DNA from: a virus
Length of the DNA stretch: 64,000 nucleotides
Virus record (IMG/VR): IMGVR_UViG_3300050821_007696
Location: 20,236-84,235 of that record
Strand: one strand, 5' to 3'
A model generated the notes under the pieces. The model saw only the letters and a list, made by a program, of their open reading frames with translations, was not told where the DNA came from and ran no database searches. Position numbers and translations under genes: made by a program. The first letter of the stretch is position 1. Each line of letters starts with the position of its first letter. Of this stretch, positions 4,700 to 64,000 are shown in pieces.

Positions 4700-5002
4700 A
4701 TGGCGATGTTCGGGCAGCTGAGTCCCGGCGCGACCGTCCAGCTGATCACGCAGAAGCTCGCTGCGCTGCGGTCCGCGTTCGAGGACTGCGAGGACGTCTA
4801 CCAGTGGCTGTCGGCCTATTCCCTGTCTGATATGGAAGCTGCGCCGCTGAGCCTGTCCGCCGGCGACGGGCAGGATATCCTCAACGCCCTCGGCGACGCC
4901 CACGACCTGTGGATGACCGCCCAGGGCGAGGCCGGGTTCCCCACCGCATCCCTGCCCTACAACTTTTTCGCGTCCATGAGGATGATCACCGGCGCGCGCT
5001 AG
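4700..5002 (+). CDS. Hypothetical protein ahead of the structural operon
   Basis: A 100-residue, mostly helical, acidic protein beginning MAMFGQLSPGATVQLITQKLAALRSAFEDCEDVYQWL. No family recognised. RBS GTAGGAG upstream. Its TAG stop runs into the first copy of the 16-bp palindrome, so it closes a transcription unit. Confidence 0.6.
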   Translation: MAMFGQLSPGATVQLITQKLAALRSAFEDCEDVYQWLSAYSLSDMEAAPLSLSAGDGQDILNALGDAHDLWMTAQGEAGFPTASLPYNFFASMRMITGAR

Positions 5003-16012: not shown

Positions 16013-16066
16013 GCGCTGCCGGGCGTTCGCCAATTGGCATTCGTGCTTACATTGGCCCGGCGGCGC
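16013..16066 (+). terminator. Long-loop hairpin; solo copy of the array repeat
   Basis: GCGCTGCCGGGC (16013-16024) pairs with GCCCGGCGGCGC (16055-16066) over 12 bp with one G-T pair; the loop is 30 bases. Inside the loop TTGGCATTCGT stands where the ~40-bp arrays near 62-64 kb carry TTGGTTCCCGT. It probably acts as a terminator before the tape measure gene, and it is the clearest dispersed copy of the array unit. The remaining ~100 bases to the next start hold only an RBS. Confidence 0.65.
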
Positions 16067-21258: not shown

Positions 21259-21330
21259 GCGCCCGTAGCTCAGCGGATAGAGCACCTGCCTACGGAGCAG
21301 ATGGCGAGGGTTCGAGTCCCTCCGGGCGCA
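21259..21330 (+). tRNA. tRNA-Arg (ACG)
   Basis: Full cloverleaf: acceptor GCGCCCG/CGGGCGC, D-stem GCTC/GAGC, anticodon loop CTACGGA (anticodon ACG), T-arm AGGG TTCGAGT CCCT, discriminator A. CCA is not encoded. The only flaw is one mismatch in the anticodon stem. TAGTAT eight bases upstream may be the -10 box. Confidence 0.9.
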
Positions 21331-21331
21331 C

Positions 21332-21404
21332 GTGCCTGTAGCTCAGGCGGGAGAGCGGTCCCCTGAAAAGGGACAGGGCGGCGGTCCGATTCCGTCCGGG
21401 CACA
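21332..21404 (+). tRNA. tRNA-Phe (GAA)
   Basis: Acceptor GTGCCTG/CGGGCAC, D-stem GCTC/GAGC, anticodon stem GTCCC/GGGAC with loop CTGAAAA (anticodon GAA), T-loop TCCGATT, discriminator A. One base separates it from tRNA-Arg, so both come from one precursor. Palindrome copy 3 follows six bases later. Confidence 0.88.
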
Positions 21405-21409
21405 CGGCC

Positions 21410-21425: not shown

Positions 21426-21621
21426 ACGGTTCCGGGCGGCACCCGCAGCCGGGCACCTGGTAGCCGTCATCCGGCGCCGACGGCTCGGCCGATACGTACA
21501 TGACGCTGACGGTGCCGCGCGGGCAGCGGTGCTGCACCAGGGGGGATGCCGTCGCGTTCTCCTGCACTCGTGAACTGCAGGCGGCGGCAGAGTGGGTTCC
21601 GTCTCCAAAGATGGCCCGCAC
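21424..21621 (-). CDS. Small Cys-containing protein, antisense to the operon direction
   Basis: A 65-residue frame starting MRAIFGDGTHSAAACSSRV and ending GYQVPGCGCRPEP. The only support is that its TAG stop coincides with the palindrome exactly as at copies 1 and 2, and that the sequence is otherwise empty. No RBS is obvious. The 113 bases to 21734 hold no other gene, only the GGAGGA RBS of the next plus-strand gene. Confidence 0.4.
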   Translation of the reverse strand: MRAIFGDGTHSAAACSSRVQENATASPLVQHRCPRGTVSVMYVSAEPSAPDDGYQVPGCGCRPEP

Positions 21622-44142: not shown

Positions 44143-44198
44143 CCGCCAGCCGGGCCATGTTAGGGACGTAACCCAGTGAGGCCGCGCCCGGCTGGCGG
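44143..44198 (+). terminator. Long-loop hairpin after the polysaccharide module
   Basis: CCGCCAGCCGGGC pairs perfectly with GCCCGGCTGGCGG (13 bp) across a 30-base loop, starting at the stop codon. Same architecture as the hairpins at 16013 and 40772. Confidence 0.75.
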
Positions 44199-56927: not shown

Positions 56928-56928
56928 G

Positions 56929-57002
56929 ATGACATCGGGGGACTTGAACCCCCAATACCCGGTTCCGAATACCGGTGCGTTTTCCGATTACGCTAGGTGT
57001 CG
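56929..57002 (-). tRNA. tRNA-Arg (TCG), imperfect acceptor
   Basis: Minus-strand cloverleaf: acceptor CGACACC / GATGTCA with two mismatched pairs (1-72 and 6-67), D-stem GCGT/ACGC, anticodon stem CCGGT/ACCGG with loop ATTCGGA (anticodon TCG), T-arm GGGGG TTCAAGT CCCCC. Core is good, acceptor weak; it may be decaying or use a non-standard pairing. CCA not encoded. Confidence 0.7.
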
Positions 57003-58047: not shown

Positions 58048-58173
58048 CTAGTTCCCGCCCTTGCAGACGCACATAACGCACGTGCACTTGCACTTAGCGG
58101 GGCACGAGCACTGGATCGTGCTTACCGTCGCCCCGCAGCAGCTGTCCTTCGTCGTACTTTCCTTCCGGTTCAG
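58048..58173 (-). CDS. Metallothionein-like Cys-rich peptide (non-ATG start)
   Basis: A 41-residue frame ending ...DSCCGATVSTIQCSCPAKCKCTCVMCVCKGGN: ten Cys, several as C-x-C, dense enough for a metal-thiolate cluster. No ATG, GTG or TTG precedes the Cys stretch; CTG 58173 is the best start. Stop lies 16 bases before the next minus-strand gene. Confidence 0.45.
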   Translation of the reverse strand: MNRKESTTKDSCCGATVSTIQCSCPAKCKCTCVMCVCKGGN

Positions 58174-58194
58174 CGGCGCAGACAGACTGGGTAC

Positions 58195-58300
58195 CGCGTG
58201 TCAAGTAGCCGCCGGCGGCGTTGTCAAGTCGGGCCTCGTGGGTTAAGTGACCGCCGGCGGTGTAGCCAAGTTAGGTTTCGCGCGGTGAATGTCCGCCGTG
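58195..58300. repeat. Short cluster of array-type repeat units
   Basis: GCCGCCGGCGGCGT (about 58209), GGGCCTCGT, CCGCCGGCGGTGT (about 58250), TTAGGTTTCGC and CCGCCGTGCG (about 58292) follow each other at ~40-base spacing like the arrays at 62-64 kb. Read on the minus strand, TTGACA occurs twice, so the cluster may also carry promoters. The rest, to 58360, holds nothing visible. Confidence 0.6.
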
Positions 58301-58360
58301 CGTGGAACCGCCGCCCCGCGACGGCTCTGGGGAAGACGGCCGGGCCGCGGGACGGCGGAG

Positions 58361-58432
58361 AGCCTCGTCGCGGGATTGAACCGCGGACCTTCGCCTTACC
58401 ATGGCGGCGCTCTGCCACTGAGCTAACGAGGC
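58361..58432 (-). tRNA. tRNA-Thr (GGT)
   Basis: Acceptor GCCTCGT/ACGAGGC (perfect), D-stem GCTC/GAGC, anticodon stem CCGCC/GGCGA with one mismatch at 27-43, loop ATGGTAA (anticodon GGT), T-arm CGCGG TTCAATC CCGCG, discriminator T. CCA not encoded. Confidence 0.9.
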
Positions 58433-58718: not shown

Positions 58719-59402
58719 TCAGTTTTCTCCTTCGGTTGCCGGTGCTTCTTCTCCCGACTCGCCGAGAGAACGTTCCTCCAGCGAGAGGTCGTAGCTGCCC
58801 GCCGCTGCCGCGGCCGAGGCGACCGGGGCACGGGACAGGTAGTCCGAAGACATCTTCCAGGCGTTGCGCTGCCCGGTGTTCGACGAGACCGTGTTCACCG
58901 ACAGGCCGCTGCGGGTGCCGATCCTGGCGCCCTCGTCGAAGGCCGCCTGCCCGCAGCCCATGTACAGCACCCGCCAGCCGTAAGCGTCCTGCTGGTGCTC
59001 AAGCGCCTCTTTCGCCTCGGGGCCGTCGTGCTCCACCCAGGTGTTGTGCTCGCCGTCGCTGTCGATCACCACGGTGACGTCCTCGGGCCGCTGGTCCCCG
59101 GGCAGCTCCGCGAGCTTGCGGCCCTCGGCGGCGACCGCCAGCACGACCGCGTCGTACAGGTTGGTGCCGCCGCGCGGCCGGATCTGGTAGCCGCGGACCG
59201 CTTCCGGGGTCTCGAAGGAGTGCACGCAGCGGATCTCGGTGTCGAAGTCCCACAGGCTGACCGTCACCTTGCCAGTACGGTGCGAGTCGCCTTCCGCAGC
59301 CAGGAACTCGTCGAGGCCGGCCTGCGCGCCCTCCAGGATCTTCTCCATGCTGCCCGACCGGTCCTGGATGACGACCCGGTGCCGGTAGCCCTTGCGCGTC
59401 AT
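58719..59402 (-). CDS. VWA-domain protein
   Basis: A 227-residue von Willebrand A fold: VVIQDRSGSMEKILEGAQAGLDEFLA gives the MIDAS D-x-S-x-S (residues 14-18), RPRGGTNLYDAVVLAV the conserved Thr, and VTVVIDSDGEHNTW the third metal motif. A disordered acidic tail follows. Common in large phages as an isolated gene; may act with an unseen AAA+ partner or bind a host protein. ATG preceded by AAGGAGAAG. Confidence 0.85.
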   Translation of the reverse strand: MTRKGYRHRVVIQDRSGSMEKILEGAQAGLDEFLAAEGDSHRTGKVTVSLWDFDTEIRCVHSFETPEAVRGYQIRPRGGTNLYDAVVLAVAAEGRKLAELPGDQRPEDVTVVIDSDGEHNTWVEHDGPEAKEALEHQQDAYGWRVLYMGCGQAAFDEGARIGTRSGLSVNTVSSNTGQRNAWKMSSDYLSRAPVASAAAAAGSYDLSLEERSLGESGEEAPATEGEN

Positions 59403-59575: not shown

Positions 59576-59826
59576 TGCTTCCGGCTGACGCGCCGGCGGG
59601 CGGTGAGTGGTGAAGAAGGGTGCAGGCCCCCGCGCCAACGAGAGCCTGCCGTTCCTCTAATCCCCTAGAGAGGCGACGGGCCGGGTGCAATTGCCTCTTG
59701 GGGAGTTCTGCTCCGGCCCGTCGTGCTCAGCTTACCTGTGTCCTGCTGTGCGTCAAACGGTAATCCGTGATCATCAGTGCGGGGCGTGACTAAATTGGTG
59801 CGCGTTACGCTGTTGGCCCCCTTGCG
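59576..59826. other. Intergenic region with long-loop hairpin and an array-type unit
   Basis: No gene seen. GACGGGCCGG (59675) pairs with CCGGCCCGTC (59713) across 28 bases. At 59781-59821 GGGGCGT, TTGGTGCGCGT and GGCCCCC reproduce one array unit with the usual spacing, immediately 3' of tRNA-Asp. The hairpin may end the tRNA transcript. Confidence 0.6.
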
Positions 59827-59899
59827 CGGTGGCGACGGGACTCGGACCCGCGATCGCTTCCTCGACAGGGAAGTGCCCTGGCCGCTGGGCTACGCCACC
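59827..59899 (-). tRNA. tRNA-Asp (GTC)
   Basis: Acceptor GGTGGCG/CGCCACC (perfect), D-stem GCCC/GGGC, anticodon stem CTTCC/GGAAG with loop CTGTCGA (anticodon GTC), T-arm GCGGG TCCGAGT CCCGT (one G-T pair), discriminator G as expected for Asp. CCA not encoded. Confidence 0.92.
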
Positions 59900-60202: not shown

Positions 60203-60220
60203 GCCTGCTCTCCCTTGCCG

Positions 60221-60294
60221 TTGCGGAGCCTGGATTTGAACCAGGGGCCTCCGGGTTATGAGCCCGGCGCGCTGCCGAACTGCGCCACCCCGCA
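60221..60294 (-). tRNA. tRNA-Met (CAT), initiator-like anticodon stem
   Basis: Acceptor TGCGGGG/CTCCGCA, D-stem GCGC/GCGC, anticodon stem CCGGG/CCCGG with loop CTCATAA (anticodon CAT), T-arm CCTGG TTCAAAT CCAGG, discriminator A. Three consecutive G-C pairs next to the anticodon loop are the initiator hallmark, but pair 1-72 is T-A rather than C/A mismatch and 11-24 is C-G as in elongators. A hybrid of both types. Confidence 0.9.
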
Positions 60295-60370: not shown

Positions 60371-60571
60371 TCAGTCTTCCACCGTGTAGGTGTCCGTTGC
60401 CTGCGGCCCGTTCGCCACGGTCACTTTCTTCGCCCCGGCCCGCAGCTGGGACAGCACCTGCTCCGCGTACTCCTCCGTCGCGCTGACTTCCAGTTCGGCC
60501 GCCAGCTCGTCCAGGGAGTACCAGGTCTCCGGGTCGTCCTCGAACCCGTTGGACGTCACCAGGATTCTCAC
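60371..60571 (-). CDS. Small hypothetical protein
   Basis: A 66-residue protein (VRILVTSNGFEDDPETWYSLDELAAELEVSATEEYAEQVLSQLRAGAKKVTVANG...). The SLDELAAELEVS segment looks like a helix-turn-helix half. GTG overlaps the stop of the ParB-like gene, so they are co-expressed. Confidence 0.6.
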   Translation of the reverse strand: MRILVTSNGFEDDPETWYSLDELAAELEVSATEEYAEQVLSQLRAGAKKVTVANGPQATDTYTVED

Positions 60572-61587
60572 TCGCCGTCCTCCTTCCGGGTACCCGCGCC
60601 CGCGGCGATCTTCTCGCGCAGGGCCAGCAGCTGGGACATGTCGCCGCGTTCCATCGCCTCGCGGGCGGTGCGCAGCTGGTGGCGGGTCATCGTGCCCGCG
60701 TCCGGCGGCAGGAAGTCCGGCACGTTCGCGGCCGGGAAGTACAGCGACCCGTCGCGGCGCCGCTCGAATCCCGGGTTCACCCGCGTGTAGCCGGCCCCGG
60801 TGACATTCTTGTTCCAGGACGTGGCGTAGGCGTAGAACTCCATCAGCCGCCGGTCGGCCGGGCGCCGGTCGCGCTTGACGCCGTTCATCAGCCAGTTGCG
60901 CAGCGCCATCGCGGGATCGCCCTTGACCAGGTTCTCGCCGTGGCGGACCTTCTCCCAGAACGGGTCCACGGTGAACGTGCCGTCCTCCGCGACCGACCCG
61001 GTGCGCCACACGGCGAAGGCCGCCCAGCTCGGGTTGGCGTGCACCGCCCGGTACAGTGCCTCCCCGGCGTGAATCGACTTCATCACCGCGTCGCTGTTCA
61101 GGTGCGCGTTCTTGGCCTGCTGGGTGACCGGGTACCGGCTCGGGTTGCGGATGCCCTCGACCCCGTAGCCCTCGTACAGGGCCATGTACCGGGTCAGCAC
61201 CGACTGGCGCTTGTAGTCGGGCACCTCGCCCATGCGGAGCATGTCCGCGTAGGTGCGCTTGCGGCCGGTGTCGATGTACTCCGCCGCCTCGTCGCGCACG
61301 CCGTAGATGAACAGCATCCACGCGCTGATCCCGGTGTTGACCACCGCCTGGAACCGGTGCTGGGCGTCGTAGGACGCCGGGCTGTCCGGGTCGGCGTCCA
61401 TGAACACCGGGCTGATCTCCGGCCACCACGAGTCAGACTTCAGGTTCTCCTCCTGGAGCCCCACCTCCATCCGCGACCTGCTGCGGTTGGGGTGCATCGT
61501 CTCCAGCAGCTCTTTCGCTATCTCCGGTGTCACCAGGACTTCCTCCGTGCGGAAGCCCGGCGGGAATCCCCTGCTCTGTCGGGACAT
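60568..61587 (-). CDS. ParB/sulfiredoxin-fold-like phage protein
   Basis: A 339-residue protein: VTPEIAKELLETMHPNRSRSRMEVGLQEENLKSDSWWPEISPVFMDADPDSPASYDAQHRFQAVVNTGISAWMLFIYGVRDEAAEYIDTGRKRTYADMLRMGEV. The Y-D-A-Q-H-R motif replaces the usual D-G-Q-H-R of the ParB-like (Srx) superfamily. The second half is helical. Phage members are thought to bind or cut DNA; here it may act on the nearby arrays. ATG after AGAGGAGAAAGC. Confidence 0.7.
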   Translation of the reverse strand: MSRQSRGFPPGFRTEEVLVTPEIAKELLETMHPNRSRSRMEVGLQEENLKSDSWWPEISPVFMDADPDSPASYDAQHRFQAVVNTGISAWMLFIYGVRDEAAEYIDTGRKRTYADMLRMGEVPDYKRQSVLTRYMALYEGYGVEGIRNPSRYPVTQQAKNAHLNSDAVMKSIHAGEALYRAVHANPSWAAFAVWRTGSVAEDGTFTVDPFWEKVRHGENLVKGDPAMALRNWLMNGVKRDRRPADRRLMEFYAYATSWNKNVTGAGYTRVNPGFERRRDGSLYFPAANVPDFLPPDAGTMTRHQLRTAREAMERGDMSQLLALREKIAAGAGTRKEDGE

Positions 61588-61678: not shown

Positions 61679-61975
61679 TCACCCGTGCTCTTTCCCGTAA
61701 TTCACGCCGTACAGGAACGCGTCGCGCGCCTCGGTTTTCTCCGGTGCGGTGTCGTCATAGCCCTCGCAGTGCGTCTCCCGCCAGTACTCCTCGAACGCTG
61801 CCTCCAGGCCGAACGGCTGCCCGTCGGCGCGCTCCAGGTTCGTGACCTTCAGGGTGTACCCGCCGGAACTCAGCCGCACGGGATTGGCGCCGGCGCGAGT
61901 CATCGCGGCTAGGGTGCCGTCCGGGTCCTCGCCGGACACCGTCACCTTCAGGTCCAGCGTCTTCGTCCTGCTCAT
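61679..61975 (-). CDS. Hypothetical protein downstream of array 1
   Basis: A 98-residue protein: strands TKTLDLKVTVSGEDPDGTLAAMTRAGANPVRLSSGGYTLKVTNL, then an acidic helical end (FGLEAAFEEYWRETHCEGYDDTAPEKTEARDAFLYGVNYG). ATG preceded by AGGAGGAAGAGC. Array 1 lies directly upstream, so it may form or control this gene's 5' region. The gap 61588-61678 between it and the ParB-like gene holds only the latter's RBS. Confidence 0.6.
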   Translation of the reverse strand: MSRTKTLDLKVTVSGEDPDGTLAAMTRAGANPVRLSSGGYTLKVTNLERADGQPFGLEAAFEEYWRETHCEGYDDTAPEKTEARDAFLYGVNYGKEHG

Positions 61976-62003: not shown

Positions 62004-62540
62004 GCCCGGCGTATTCCACGTGGCTGCCGCAGGGGTGACGGCCGGGCGTTATTACCGATGGCTGCCGTAGCAGGTACGGCCCGGCGCCTGCAAGCTGGTG
62101 CTCGTTTTCGAAGTGGCCGGGCGGCGTTACACACTGGGGTCGCGCGCCATGTTTGGCCGCCCGGCGTTATTCGCTTGGTGCCCGCAGATCTTGTGGCCGG
62201 GCGTTTCCAGCTTGGCTCCCGCTGATTCAGTGGCCCGGCGTACTTACGATGGAGCTGCCGTGCTTCGATTGGCCGGGCCGGGGCGTCTGTCGCGTGGTTC
62301 CCGTTATGAGGATGTCCCCTCTGCCCTGGCGTTCCTTCCATTGAGCCCTGTCCTGAGATTGGCCGGGCCGGGGCGTCTATCGCGTGGTTCCCGCTGCTCG
62401 TATGTCCCCTCTGCCCTGGCGTCTCGCCTTCGGTTCCCGTTTCCGTTACAGCCGGGCGGGGCGTACCCGCGATGGCTCCCGTGACCTACTCGGCCCCCTG
62501 CCCCGGCGTTACCCACACTGGGCCGCGTCTCCACATTGGC
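62004..62540. repeat. Array 1: about 14 units of ~40 bp with complementary cores
   Basis: Units start near 62004, 62040, 62078, 62115, 62155, 62195, 62232, 62271, 62314, 62361, 62403, 62451, 62491 and 62537. Each has a GC core ending in GCGT, 7-9 variable bases, a TTGGTTCCCGT-like motif and 8-9 variable bases. Cores alternate G-rich and C-rich, and each G-rich core is complementary to the next: GCCGGGC/GCCCGGC, GCCGGGCGGC/GCCGCCCGGC, GCCGGGC/GCCCGGC, then longer G-rich/C-rich pairs. No protein-coding signal. Confidence 0.85.
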
Positions 62541-62557
62541 CAGGGCAGGGAAACCCC

Positions 62558-63463
62558 TCAGCTGTGCAGCCCGCCCCCGGTCCGGTGCCTGCCCCGGCGC
62601 CTGCCCTCCTCGCCCGCCCGGCTCGCGCCGAACACCGGCTCCTGCCCCCCGGCCGTCAGCCACAGGTCCCGCAGGATCTCCTTCGCCGTGTGCCGCAGCG
62701 CGATCGCGTGCACGTGCGAGGGCTGAAACGGGTCGCCCGCCTCGGCGTAGCCCATCTTCGCCTTCTCCCGCTCGGCCAGCTCGCCGTAGAACTGCCCCGA
62801 GGTGTCCTGCGGGCGGGTCTTGCACTTGACGTACAGCGCCCCGGAGAACCCGCCCTCGCACTTCACCGAGTGCACCTTCAGCGCGTACTTCTCCTTCACC
62901 CGGTCGTACACGTGCCGGTACCCGGTGCCGCCCTTCGCGTTCGACTTCACCTGCGCCGACGCCAGCAGGTAGCCCAGCTTCTTCGCGTCGGGGCGGCCGT
63001 TCGCCATCAGTGCCTCCGCGTCCCCCTTCACGTCCCGGTTCTTCGGGGCGCCGCGGCCGGTGTACTGCCACAGCTGGCTCAGCATCCGCGGGTGCGGCTC
63101 GTCGTCCACCAGGTGCCGGTCGCTGCCGGTCCCCTCCCAGTGCCTCGGGTACGCCATCCGCGGGTCGCCGGTGATGCCCAGCAGCCGCGCCAGGGTGTGC
63201 TCCCCGATCCCCGGGGTCTCCCGCGCCCAGCTCTGCACCGTCTCCGGCACCGTCACCCGGTAGCAGGCCAGCAGCTCCTTCTCCGTCCGCTTCTCCGCCT
63301 CGGCGTACAGGTCCGCGACCGGCCCCAGGGCCTCGGTCGCGACCGTCCCCGACCGCTCCTTGTTGTCGAACGCGATCCGCGCGGCCTGCGCGTCCGCGAA
63401 CGCCTCCGCCCACATCCGCAGCTCCGCGTACGAGCCCGGGTTGGTGCGCTTCGGTGTCCTCAT
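62558..63463 (-). CDS. Helix-hairpin-helix protein resembling the IS110 C-terminal domain
   Basis: A 301-residue protein. WARETPGIGEHTLARLLGITGDPR (about residues 88-111) is a helix-hairpin-helix of the kind that opens the IS110/IS116/IS902 transposase C-terminal domain. LWQYTGRGAP (about residues 139-148) and HAIALRHTAKEILRDLW (about residues 261-277) match later blocks of that domain. The N-terminal ~85 residues are helical; the DEDD RuvC-like domain of a full IS110 enzyme is absent, and no clear SG nucleophile is seen. ATG 63463 follows AGGAGGAAC. Arrays flank the gene on both sides, which makes a functional link plausible. Confidence 0.65.
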   Translation of the reverse strand: MRTPKRTNPGSYAELRMWAEAFADAQAARIAFDNKERSGTVATEALGPVADLYAEAEKRTEKELLACYRVTVPETVQSWARETPGIGEHTLARLLGITGDPRMAYPRHWEGTGSDRHLVDDEPHPRMLSQLWQYTGRGAPKNRDVKGDAEALMANGRPDAKKLGYLLASAQVKSNAKGGTGYRHVYDRVKEKYALKVHSVKCEGGFSGALYVKCKTRPQDTSGQFYGELAEREKAKMGYAEAGDPFQPSHVHAIALRHTAKEILRDLWLTAGGQEPVFGASRAGEEGRRRGRHRTGGGLHS

Positions 63464-63479
63464 GCTGTTCCTCCTGTTT

Positions 63480-64000
63480 GCCCGGCGGCGTAAAGCCCTT
63501 GGTTTCCGTACCTGGTACGGCCGCCTGGCGTGTTCGGTGCTGAGCCTTGTTATCCTGCTGGCCGGCGGCGCTGGCATCTTGGGTACCGCCTAGCGTGTAG
63601 CCGCCTGGCGTGCCTGTTCTGGTCCTCGTGCAACATGTGGCCGGCGGCGTTTAGTGATTGGCTTCCGTCAGTTCGCTAGCCGCCCGGCGTGTCTCATTTA
63701 GTTTCCGCTGAACCGATAGCCGGCGGCGCCTGATCCACGGTTCTCGCCCTTCCACTGGCCGCCCGGCGTTCGATGTTCGGCTGTCGCGTAAACGGTGGCC
63801 TGGCGGCGCTGATCCTCTGGCTCCCGCGTTTTCGGTTTAGCCGCCCGGCGTATTTTCTCTGGTCCGCGTCGGGACTGTGGCCGGCGGCGTCCGGATGGTG
63901 GTTTCCGTCACTATATTGGCCGCCTGGCGCTTCCCCAGCGGGGCTCGTCTCCGTTCATAGCCGGCGGCGTCGCGATAGTGGTTCCCGTCATTAGACTGGC
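63480..64000. repeat. Array 2: 13 alternating ~40-bp units, running off the window
   Basis: Cores start at 63480, 63519, 63560, 63600, 63639, 63679, 63719, 63757, 63797, 63840, 63879, 63918 and 63960, spacing 38-43. They alternate strictly between form A (GCCGGCGGCGT) and form B (GCCGCCTGGCGT or GCCGCCCGGCGT), which can pair with one bulge. Between cores lies a TTGGTTTCCGT-like motif flanked by variable bases. The final bases, TGGC, begin another unit, so the array continues. It is immediately upstream of the HhH gene. Confidence 0.88.

What the first reader, a model, noticed from the sequence alone, without database searches (positions are those of the whole stretch)
62558..63463. IS110-like helix-hairpin-helix protein sandwiched between the two arrays
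The protein keeps the PGIG...GDP hairpin and later blocks of the IS110 C-terminal domain but lacks the N-terminal RuvC-like domain. IS110 enzymes are guided by a structured non-coding (bridge) RNA encoded next to the transposase. Here an IS110-like fragment lies between two arrays of structured non-coding repeats. A domesticated protein that binds the array RNA or DNA is an attractive hypothesis.
Basis: inference. Interest (0 to 1): 0.72.

Follow-up and report, generated by a model that had tools for sequence, protein, structure and literature searches.

The report
TIGR-TasA guide-RNA system in an actinophage
The protein and its two flanking repeat arrays are a phage-borne TIGR-TasA system, a recently discovered kind of RNA-guided DNA-binding machine without a nuclease, here with extra guide units scattered through the phage genome and, in cultured relatives, guides that are swapped rapidly between sister phages.

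Summary
The gene is real and is not simply an IS110 remnant. It is TasA, the nuclease-less Nop-domain effector of a TIGR-Tas system (Faure et al. 2025), and the two arrays are its TIGR guide arrays. Profile search, predicted fold and array anatomy agree. The best solved matches are TasR (Z 17.3) and TasH (Z 16.6), ahead of IS110 recombinases (Z 14). The array units read edge repeat, 9-nt spacer, loop repeat, 9-nt spacer, with boxes CG and CCA.

Gene and array co-occur: 17 of 18 related viral loci carry such units beside the gene. Arms of box-defined units pair at 90% of positions, against 50% when re-dealt.

Beyond the published description I read: (1) edge repeats alternate between two mutually complementary forms, so tandem and stem-loop layouts merge; (2) solitary stem-loop units lie between genes across the phage and its relative; (3) in 17 cultured mycobacteriophages with 99.7% identical TasA the same array has near-random spacers (pi about 0.6) in invariant frames (pi 0-0.04). 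No natural target was found in the DNA I could scan. Transcription, processing and DNA binding are inferred.

The parts
62558..63463 (-). tasA: 301-aa solo Nop-domain protein (TIGR-associated protein A), no nuclease domain
63475..64000 (-). TIGR array upstream of tasA: 13 units (cut by the contig end); edge repeats strictly alternate CGCCGCC[GA]GGC / CGCC[AG]GGCGGC, which are mutually complementary; ends in the ribosome-binding site of tasA
62004..62547 (-). TIGR array downstream of tasA: 13 units; ends just before the ribosome-binding site of the next gene (61975)
58171..58299 (-). mini-array of about 3 TIGR-like units beside tRNA-Thr
   Evidence: weak in the covariance-model search (E 0.67 for one unit)
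44147..44194 (+). solitary stem-loop guide unit (stem of at least 12 bp) between plus-strand genes, 18 kb from tasA
   Evidence: best hit in the window of a model trained on other phages, E 1.2e-5; stem 12; intergenic; sequence
16016..16063 (-). solitary stem-loop guide unit just upstream of a 1671-aa plus-strand ORF, antisense to it
   Evidence: E 0.0044; intergenic
21582..21614 (-). possible solitary unit in the tRNA gap between two large ORFs (weak)
   Evidence: box pattern with 6-bp stem, sequence; not listed at these coordinates
59785..59816 (-). possible solitary unit beside tRNA-Asp (weak)
   Evidence: box pattern only
61679..61975 (-). 98-aa conserved small gene following array 1; similar ORF upstream of the tasA array in L002
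   Evidence: compared by eye; no family match
60568..61587 (-). conserved neighbour (phrog_5931, unknown function) with a DAQHRF motif; ParB/Srx-like? undecided
   Evidence: profile and fold tests uninformative

Best explanation
This is a TIGR-TasA system of an actinobacterial phage. The arrays are read as RNA on the same strand as tasA. Each unit (box C CCA, spacer A 9 nt, loop repeat CG....CCA, spacer B 9 nt, box D CG, with edge halves that can pair) becomes one short guide RNA. A TasA dimer holds the guide by its C and D boxes. Spacers A and B pair with opposite strands of one site of about 18 bp, so that TasA opens and bends the DNA but, having no RuvC or HNH domain, does not cut it. The likely effect is RNA-guided blocking of transcription or replication at the target. 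Shown here: membership by sequence, fold and array anatomy; stem pairing with compensatory change; spacers as the fast-changing part. Inferred from the solved TasR and TasH systems: transcription, processing, DNA binding and the bend. Unknown: the targets; I favour rival phages or other mobile elements over the phage itself.
For: Profile of 18 homologues hits PDB TasR 9mty E 5.4e-20 and TasH 21kl E 3.5e-14. NCBIfam NF052498 TIGR_Tas_endo E 7.7e-26. AlphaFold2 model pLDDT 81; Foldseek ranks seven TasH/TasR chains first; VIA-align Z 17.3 TasR, 16.6 TasH, 14.0 ISCro4, 13.8 IS621, 8.2 Nop5. Array unit layout matches the published one (edge repeat, 9-nt spacer, loop repeat, 9-nt spacer) in 26 window units, 20 of 26 with exactly 9 and 9 nt as I read. 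17 of 18 related loci have units beside the gene, 82 on the gene strand against 5 on the other, shuffles 0.0-0.2 per locus. Units chosen by boxes alone: 84 against 4 by strand; 8-bp arms pair at 90%, re-dealt arms 50.1 +/- 1.8%. In 17 mycobacteriophages spacer diversity is 0.59-0.63, stems and boxes 0.00-0.04 (units 1 and 4), tasA 0.022.
Against: NF052498 is under its curated cut-off (91.4 of 100 bits), though that model is for the endonuclease. No Pfam hit at all. Some window boxes are degenerate (CTA, CCG). Box D is CG, not the UG seen in TasR. No transcript data. No target found: window units against own and sister genome at chance; 49 mycobacteriophage spacer pairs against five phage stretches at chance; the two commonest pairs absent from 396 genomes of one genus, probably Mycobacterium. 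One of 18 relatives (L012) has no unit beside its gene.
Confidence: 0.88

Rival explanations
1. A domesticated IS110 transposase fragment: the RuvC part was lost and the remaining Nop/HhH part binds bridge-RNA-like loops left from the element.
For: Same fold as IS621 and ISCro4 (Z 13.8-14.0); conserved GIG/GDP block.
Against: TasR and TasH are closer by profile and fold; arrays of many single two-spacer units rather than one two-loop RNA.
Confidence: 0.06
2. The arrays act as DNA: iteron-like or operator-like binding sites for a DNA-binding HhH protein, not as RNA.
For: Many regular repeats in intergenic gaps; alternating palindrome-like edges.
Against: Strong strand bias to the gene strand (84 to 4) and arms that change while keeping pairing (90% against 50%); near-random 9-nt spacers at fixed places between invariant boxes; layout equal to a solved RNA-guided family.
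Confidence: 0.04
3. A TIGR-TasA system whose guides act on RNA (antisense or snoRNA-like) rather than on DNA.
For: Box C/D guides and Nop proteins act on RNA in archaea and eukaryotes (established knowledge); solitary units antisense to neighbouring genes exist.
Against: TasR did not act on RNA substrates in the published work (PMC12045711, read); no methyltransferase partner noticed here (not searched for).
Confidence: 0.12
4. A TIGR-TasA system that regulates or organises the phage's own genome (gene control, replication, segregation with a ParB-like partner).
For: TasA loci with ParB-like genes are reported (PMC12045711, section read); a conserved neighbour with a QHR motif is present in both this phage and its closest relative.
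Against: No tandem site better than chance for 33 window units in their own or the sister genome (11 at 15 of 18 or better, control 7-17); spacers turn over fast between sister phages, unlike fixed own sites; the neighbour's ParB nature is undecided.
Confidence: 0.15

Closest known systems
TIGR-TasA systems, stem-loop arrays (Faure et al. 2025, PMC12045711)
   Different: In this phage and its closest relative the tasA-proximal units are tandem with shared, alternating complementary edge repeats and near-constant loop repeats, and single hairpin units also lie far from tasA between other genes.
TIGR dual-repeat arrays of TasA/TasR/TasH (same paper)
   Same: Edge repeat, 9-nt spacer, loop repeat, 9-nt spacer; unit of 36-46 nt; CCA ends both repeats.
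   Different: Both repeats start with CG instead of UG; edge repeats are palindrome-like and alternate; repeats vary more within one array.
TIGR-TasR (PDB 9MTY) and TasH (PDB 21KL, 9VZX and others)
   Same: Nop domain, coiled coil and C-terminal part align over 189-215 residues.
   Different: No N-terminal RuvC or HNH nuclease.
IS110-family recombinases IS621 and ISCro4
   Same: Shared Nop-like RNA-binding core (Z about 14).
   Different: No DEDD RuvC domain; guides are many single units, not one bridge RNA; element ends were not sought.
PHROG 4285 'transposase' of mycobacteriophages (BPBiebs31 gp74 and kin)
   Same: Homologous protein with its own 5-unit stem-loop array upstream.
   Different: About 30-32% identical to the window protein; annotated as transposase, HTH protein or hypothetical protein.

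Membership tests
TIGR-Tas (TasA branch) | Protein with a Nop domain related to TasR/TasH | tested here: met
TIGR-Tas (TasA branch) | No RuvC or HNH domain N-terminal to the Nop domain | tested here: met
   model residue 13 aligns to TasR 112 and model residue 8 to TasH 64
TIGR-Tas (TasA branch) | Adjacent array of units with two spacers of about 9 nt between two alternating repeats or inside hairpins | tested here: met
TIGR-Tas (TasA branch) | Edge and loop repeats share box D at the start and box C (CCA) at the end | tested here: met
   CG....CCA in both; box D is CG here, UG in TasR; some window copies degenerate
TIGR-Tas (TasA branch) | Array is transcribed and processed to tigRNA bound by the Tas protein | not testable with these tools
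   needs RNA sequencing and pull-down
TIGR-Tas (TasA branch) | Spacers A and B direct binding to opposite strands of one DNA site | not testable with these tools
   no target found; a biochemical test is needed
NCBIfam NF052498 TIGR_Tas_endo (endonuclease equivalog) | Score over the curated cut-off of 100 bits | tested here: not met
   91.4 bits, E 7.7e-26: not filed as a Tas endonuclease
IS110 transposase | N-terminal DEDD RuvC-like domain | tested here: not met
   absent by length and alignment
IS110 transposase | Match to Pfam Transposase_20 or DEDD_Tnp_IS110 | tested here: not met
   no Pfam family at E up to 10
IS110 transposase | Element ends and a single bridge RNA | not tested
   no search for element ends was made
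TasParB association | Neighbour is a ParB-domain protein | tested here: inconclusive
   PDB profile search gave no ParB, model pLDDT 38; only a QHR motif suggests it

The most novel reading that the evidence does not exclude
The phage runs a genome-wide, snoRNA-like set of guide RNAs: tandem arrays beside tasA plus solitary stem-loop guides seeded in intergenic gaps over tens of kilobases, and the guide spacers are exchanged as cassettes between sister phages while their hairpin frames stay fixed. That would make TIGR-TasA a fast-evolving, cut-free targeting system in contests among phages of one host, in cultured mycobacteriophages where it can be tested.
Probability: 0.4. Interest if true: 0.85.

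Novelty: new variant of a known kind. Interest (0 to 1): 0.66.

Why it matters
TIGR-Tas was described in 2025, and the paper says that the natural targets, the source of new spacers and the role of nuclease-free TasA are open, because most loci come from metagenomes. Here the system is found in many cultured phages of Mycobacterium smegmatis mc2 155. At least 17 carry the same array frame with varying spacers and an almost identical TasA. That is a ready-made allelic series for finding targets and spacer exchange. The solitary units show that a search limited to the neighbourhood of tas genes misses guides. Some 80 phage records carry this protein under names such as 'transposase', 'HTH DNA binding' or 'hypothetical protein'.

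Tried and rejected
Targets. (1) All units then parsed, against all held phage DNA, target = A then reverse complement of B with a gap of 0-2: 18 hits at 16 of 18 or better against 12-14 in re-dealt controls, none over 16. (2) 49 spacer pairs from 17 mycobacteriophages against BPBiebs31 (in two pieces), 50 kb each of Bxb1 and Rajelicia and 40 kb of Rich, four pairing geometries: real counts near controls (45 against 33-48 for the expected geometry; A.B 58 against 23-47 is the one excess, and I do not read it as signal). (3) Joined targets by BLAST against the phage collection: no match, but an 18-nt hit would have had E of about 17 by my estimate, over the limit of 10, so these two calls say nothing. 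(4) Exact patterns in IMG/VR: none for two pairs; six hits for one pair, all one sequence family with gap 1, which I count as one event that chance could give in so large a collection. (5) The two commonest pairs in 396 genomes of the genus of G094, taken to be Mycobacterium only because of its PE proteins: none. (6) 33 window units against own and sister genome: 11 hits at 15 of 18 or better, controls 7-17, none at 16.

Neighbour as ParB: profile and structure gave nothing usable. Looking for its relatives in IMG/VR gave only the known sister contig. Phage DNA similar to the window's array region: none. Rfam at gathering thresholds: only tRNAs. Accessions recalled for Omega and L5 (NC_004688, AY129338, NC_001335) are not in the collection. 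The pair counts on alignment A3 are partly circular, since its 61 rows were chosen for 7 or more of 8 pairs; the unbiased test is.

Full report
WHAT IS THERE. The window is bases 20236-84235 of an 84,235-base IMG/VR virus record; its last base is the end of the contig. The 301-aa frame at 62558-63463 (minus strand) is as described. Two arrays flank it on the same strand: 63475-64000 upstream, running off the contig, and 62004-62547 downstream. Both end directly before a ribosome-binding site, of tasA and of the next gene. A short third array lies at about 58171-58299.

WHAT THE PROTEIN IS. Pfam has no match at E up to 10. PHROG 4285 'transposase' matches with E 1.8e-27. NCBIfam's TIGR_Tas_endo matches with E 7.7e-26, but at 91.4 bits it is under its cut-off of 100. 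An alignment of 18 proteins, the window's and 17 relatives from IMG/VR, used as a profile against the PDB, finds TasR 9mty at 5.4e-20 (its depositors' molecule name is 'Transposase IS116/IS110/IS902 C-terminal domain-containing protein') and TasH 21kl at 3.5e-14; no IS110 recombinase structure is among the 14 listed. Lower rows of that list (GDAP1, E 0.0025 and more; topoisomerase V, 0.65 and more) I take as chance. AlphaFold2 gives pLDDT 81, pTM 0.77. Foldseek's first seven rows are TasH and TasR, the next four IS621. VIA-align gives TasR Z 17.3 (189 residues, 2.7 A), TasH 16.6, ISCro4 14.0, IS621 13.8, Nop5 8.2, then a background at about 7. The alignment starts at TasR residue 112 and TasH residue about 64, so the nuclease domains are absent. 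This is the TasA type of Faure et al. 2025. Of that paper (PMC12045711) I read the first two of twelve parts, sections 8, 9, 10, 24, 44 and 49, and passages; the supplements were not available, so I cannot say whether these phages are in its Table S1. It cites a mycobacteriophage review in its reference list as number 41, the number given for tailed phages with TIGR loci.

WHAT THE ARRAYS ARE. On the gene strand each unit reads CG-edge-CCA, spacer A, CG....CCA, spacer B. In the 26 units of the two main arrays, 20 have exactly 9 and 9 nt as I read them; the rest have 8-10 in one spacer. This is the published TIGR layout. In array 2 the 13 complete edge repeats alternate strictly between CGCCGCC[GA]GGC and CGCC[AG]GGCGGC (the last copy, next to tasA, is CGCCGCCGGGC), which are complementary, so any two neighbours can close a stem over the unit between them. 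The closest relative, L002 on contig G001 (69% identical protein), shows the same with cleaner repeats, ACGCC[CG]GGCCA-N8-ACGRRACCCA. [quoted passage not shown] this phage is such a hybrid.

CO-OCCURRENCE. Around the related genes I sought units within 2 kb. 17 of 18 loci have at least one unit on the gene strand (16 have two or more; L020 one, L012 none): 82 units against 5 on the other strand, shuffles 0.0-0.2 per locus. Of the 19 loci, L011 (a near copy of L010) was left out, and L015 is a near copy of L014. The unit in those phages is a private hairpin: arm, CCA, 9 nt, CG....CCA, 9 nt, CG, arm. To avoid choosing by stem, I took units in 16 loci (L002, L011 and L015 left out) by their box letters alone: 84 on the gene strand and 4 on the other, in 15 of 16 loci. 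The 8-bp arms pair at 90% of positions, against 50.1 +/- 1.8% (maximum 55%) when the 3' arms are re-dealt; 59 different 5' arms occur among the 68 best units. The pairing with compensatory change says that the unit works as RNA.

SOLITARY UNITS. Over whole contigs the box pattern is found in 20 of 20 records. For the sister contig G001 it gives 49 matches against 4 for the reversed control pattern, spread from 43 to 115 kb; 37 of 49 lie between genes by a rough gene call of my own. In that call some array units are counted as genic because spurious ORFs were called across arrays. A covariance model trained on 61 hairpins of twelve other loci, none from this phage or G001, finds as its best hit in the window a solitary unit at 44147-44194 (+), E 1.2e-5, and a second at 16016-16063 (-), E 0.0044, besides array units at E 0.01-0.3. 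Two more lie at L021:3623 and 3814 (E 0.033 and 0.014) outside the window. In G001 it gives 41 hits at E up to 1, from base 4,725 to 114,618. In the control stretches, Bxb1 and the left half of BPBiebs31, it finds none. The E-values come from a short calibration and are rough. The main text that I read places arrays beside the tas gene and contrasts clustered tigRNAs with scattered snoRNAs; solitary units far from the gene are not described there.

CULTURED RELATIVES. tblastn finds the protein in 82 phage records with the window protein as query and in 84 with the L018 protein, mostly M. smegmatis mc2 155 phages, at under 60% identity. BPBiebs31 gp74 has hairpin units directly upstream, and Rich has them around its gp50. 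The BPBiebs31 array region is found in 74 Mycobacterium records, 70 of them at only 60-90% identity. I fetched 16 of these along the ranking, plus BPBiebs31: 17 of 74 records. TasA is 99.7% identical on average (minimum 98.7%, first 225 aa), and the array keeps five hairpins, but of 17 phages 9, 12, 9, 11 and 8 distinct cores occur at units 1-5. Nucleotide diversity for units 1 and 4 is 0.59-0.63 in the spacers, 0.00-0.04 in stems and boxes, and 0.022 in tasA. Alleles of different units combine freely as far as I can see by eye, and a few half-spacers recur with different partners. Only units 1 and 4 were measured for diversity. This is what guide sequences under strong diversifying pressure, exchanged as cassettes, would look like; mutation alone within the hairpin would not spare the frames. 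The mechanism of exchange is inferred.

TARGETS. From the cleavage geometry in the paper I derive the target as spacer A followed by the reverse complement of spacer B, gap 0-2. No scan with that geometry beat its control, and the two commonest pairs are absent from 396 genomes of a genus that is probably Mycobacterium. The BLAST attempts were underpowered. So the natural targets stay unknown, and the role of TasA is inferred: cut-free RNA-guided binding.

NEIGHBOURS. L002 shares with the window a run of tasA, arrays, the phrog_5931 gene, a gene like the window's DUF7873 gene and a lysin-like gene, and a relative of the 98-aa gene, though that one lies on the other side of tasA (compared by eye). 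The phrog_5931 neighbour is 50% identical between the two. It carries a DAQHRF motif that recalls ParB/Srx (recalled), and the paper reports TasA-ParB operons, but my tests could not decide.

LITERATURE. [quoted passage not shown] neither, in what I saw, describes solitary units or spacer alleles among sister phages.

Noticed in passing
L007:6642-6689, L016:1750-1797, L019:6232-6339, L020:6563-6594, L055:2971-3018: Guide hairpin units lie inside the tas reading frame itself; in L007, L016, L019 and L020 at the variable insertions of the protein alignment, so the guide is also coding sequence.
   Followed up: partly
Phage records listed: TasA homologues of mycobacteriophages are annotated as transposase, HTH DNA binding protein or hypothetical protein.
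   Followed up: yes
17 mycobacteriophage loci (L037, L039-L054), units 2 and 4: Half-spacers recur with different partners (for example one spacer A with two spacers B), as if recombination also occurs in the loop repeat.
   Followed up: no
L018 (IMGVR_UViG_638276483_000001, 110,865 bases): By length this is probably mycobacteriophage Omega (recalled, not verified); it has eight guide units around its tas gene.
   Followed up: no
G016 (contig of L017, 118,920 bases): Twenty pattern matches against three in the control, many far from tas (5.6-13.4 kb and elsewhere), so scattered units may be common.
   Followed up: no
L012: The one relative of 18 without any unit within 2 kb of its tas gene.
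   Followed up: no
window 58719-59402 (-): Weak match to a VWA-like family (DUF2201, E 0.0028, under cut-off) and a match to phrog_7371.
   Followed up: no
window 21259-21405, 56928-57002, 58360-58432, 59826-59899, 60220-60294: Six tRNA genes (Arg-acg, Phe, Arg-tcg, Thr, Asp, Met); those at 21259-21405, 58360 and 59826 stand near guide units or possible guide units.
   Followed up: no
L005:4143-4418: Many-fold 12-nt tandem repeat (GGACGCCGCTCG-like) about 0.7 kb before the first guide unit.
   Followed up: no
L055 (Actinomycetota MAG contig, 4,022 bases): The only relative found in the bacterial genome collection with the BPBiebs31 protein as query; it has five hairpin units upstream of tas, probably prophage or phage DNA in a bin.
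   Followed up: partly
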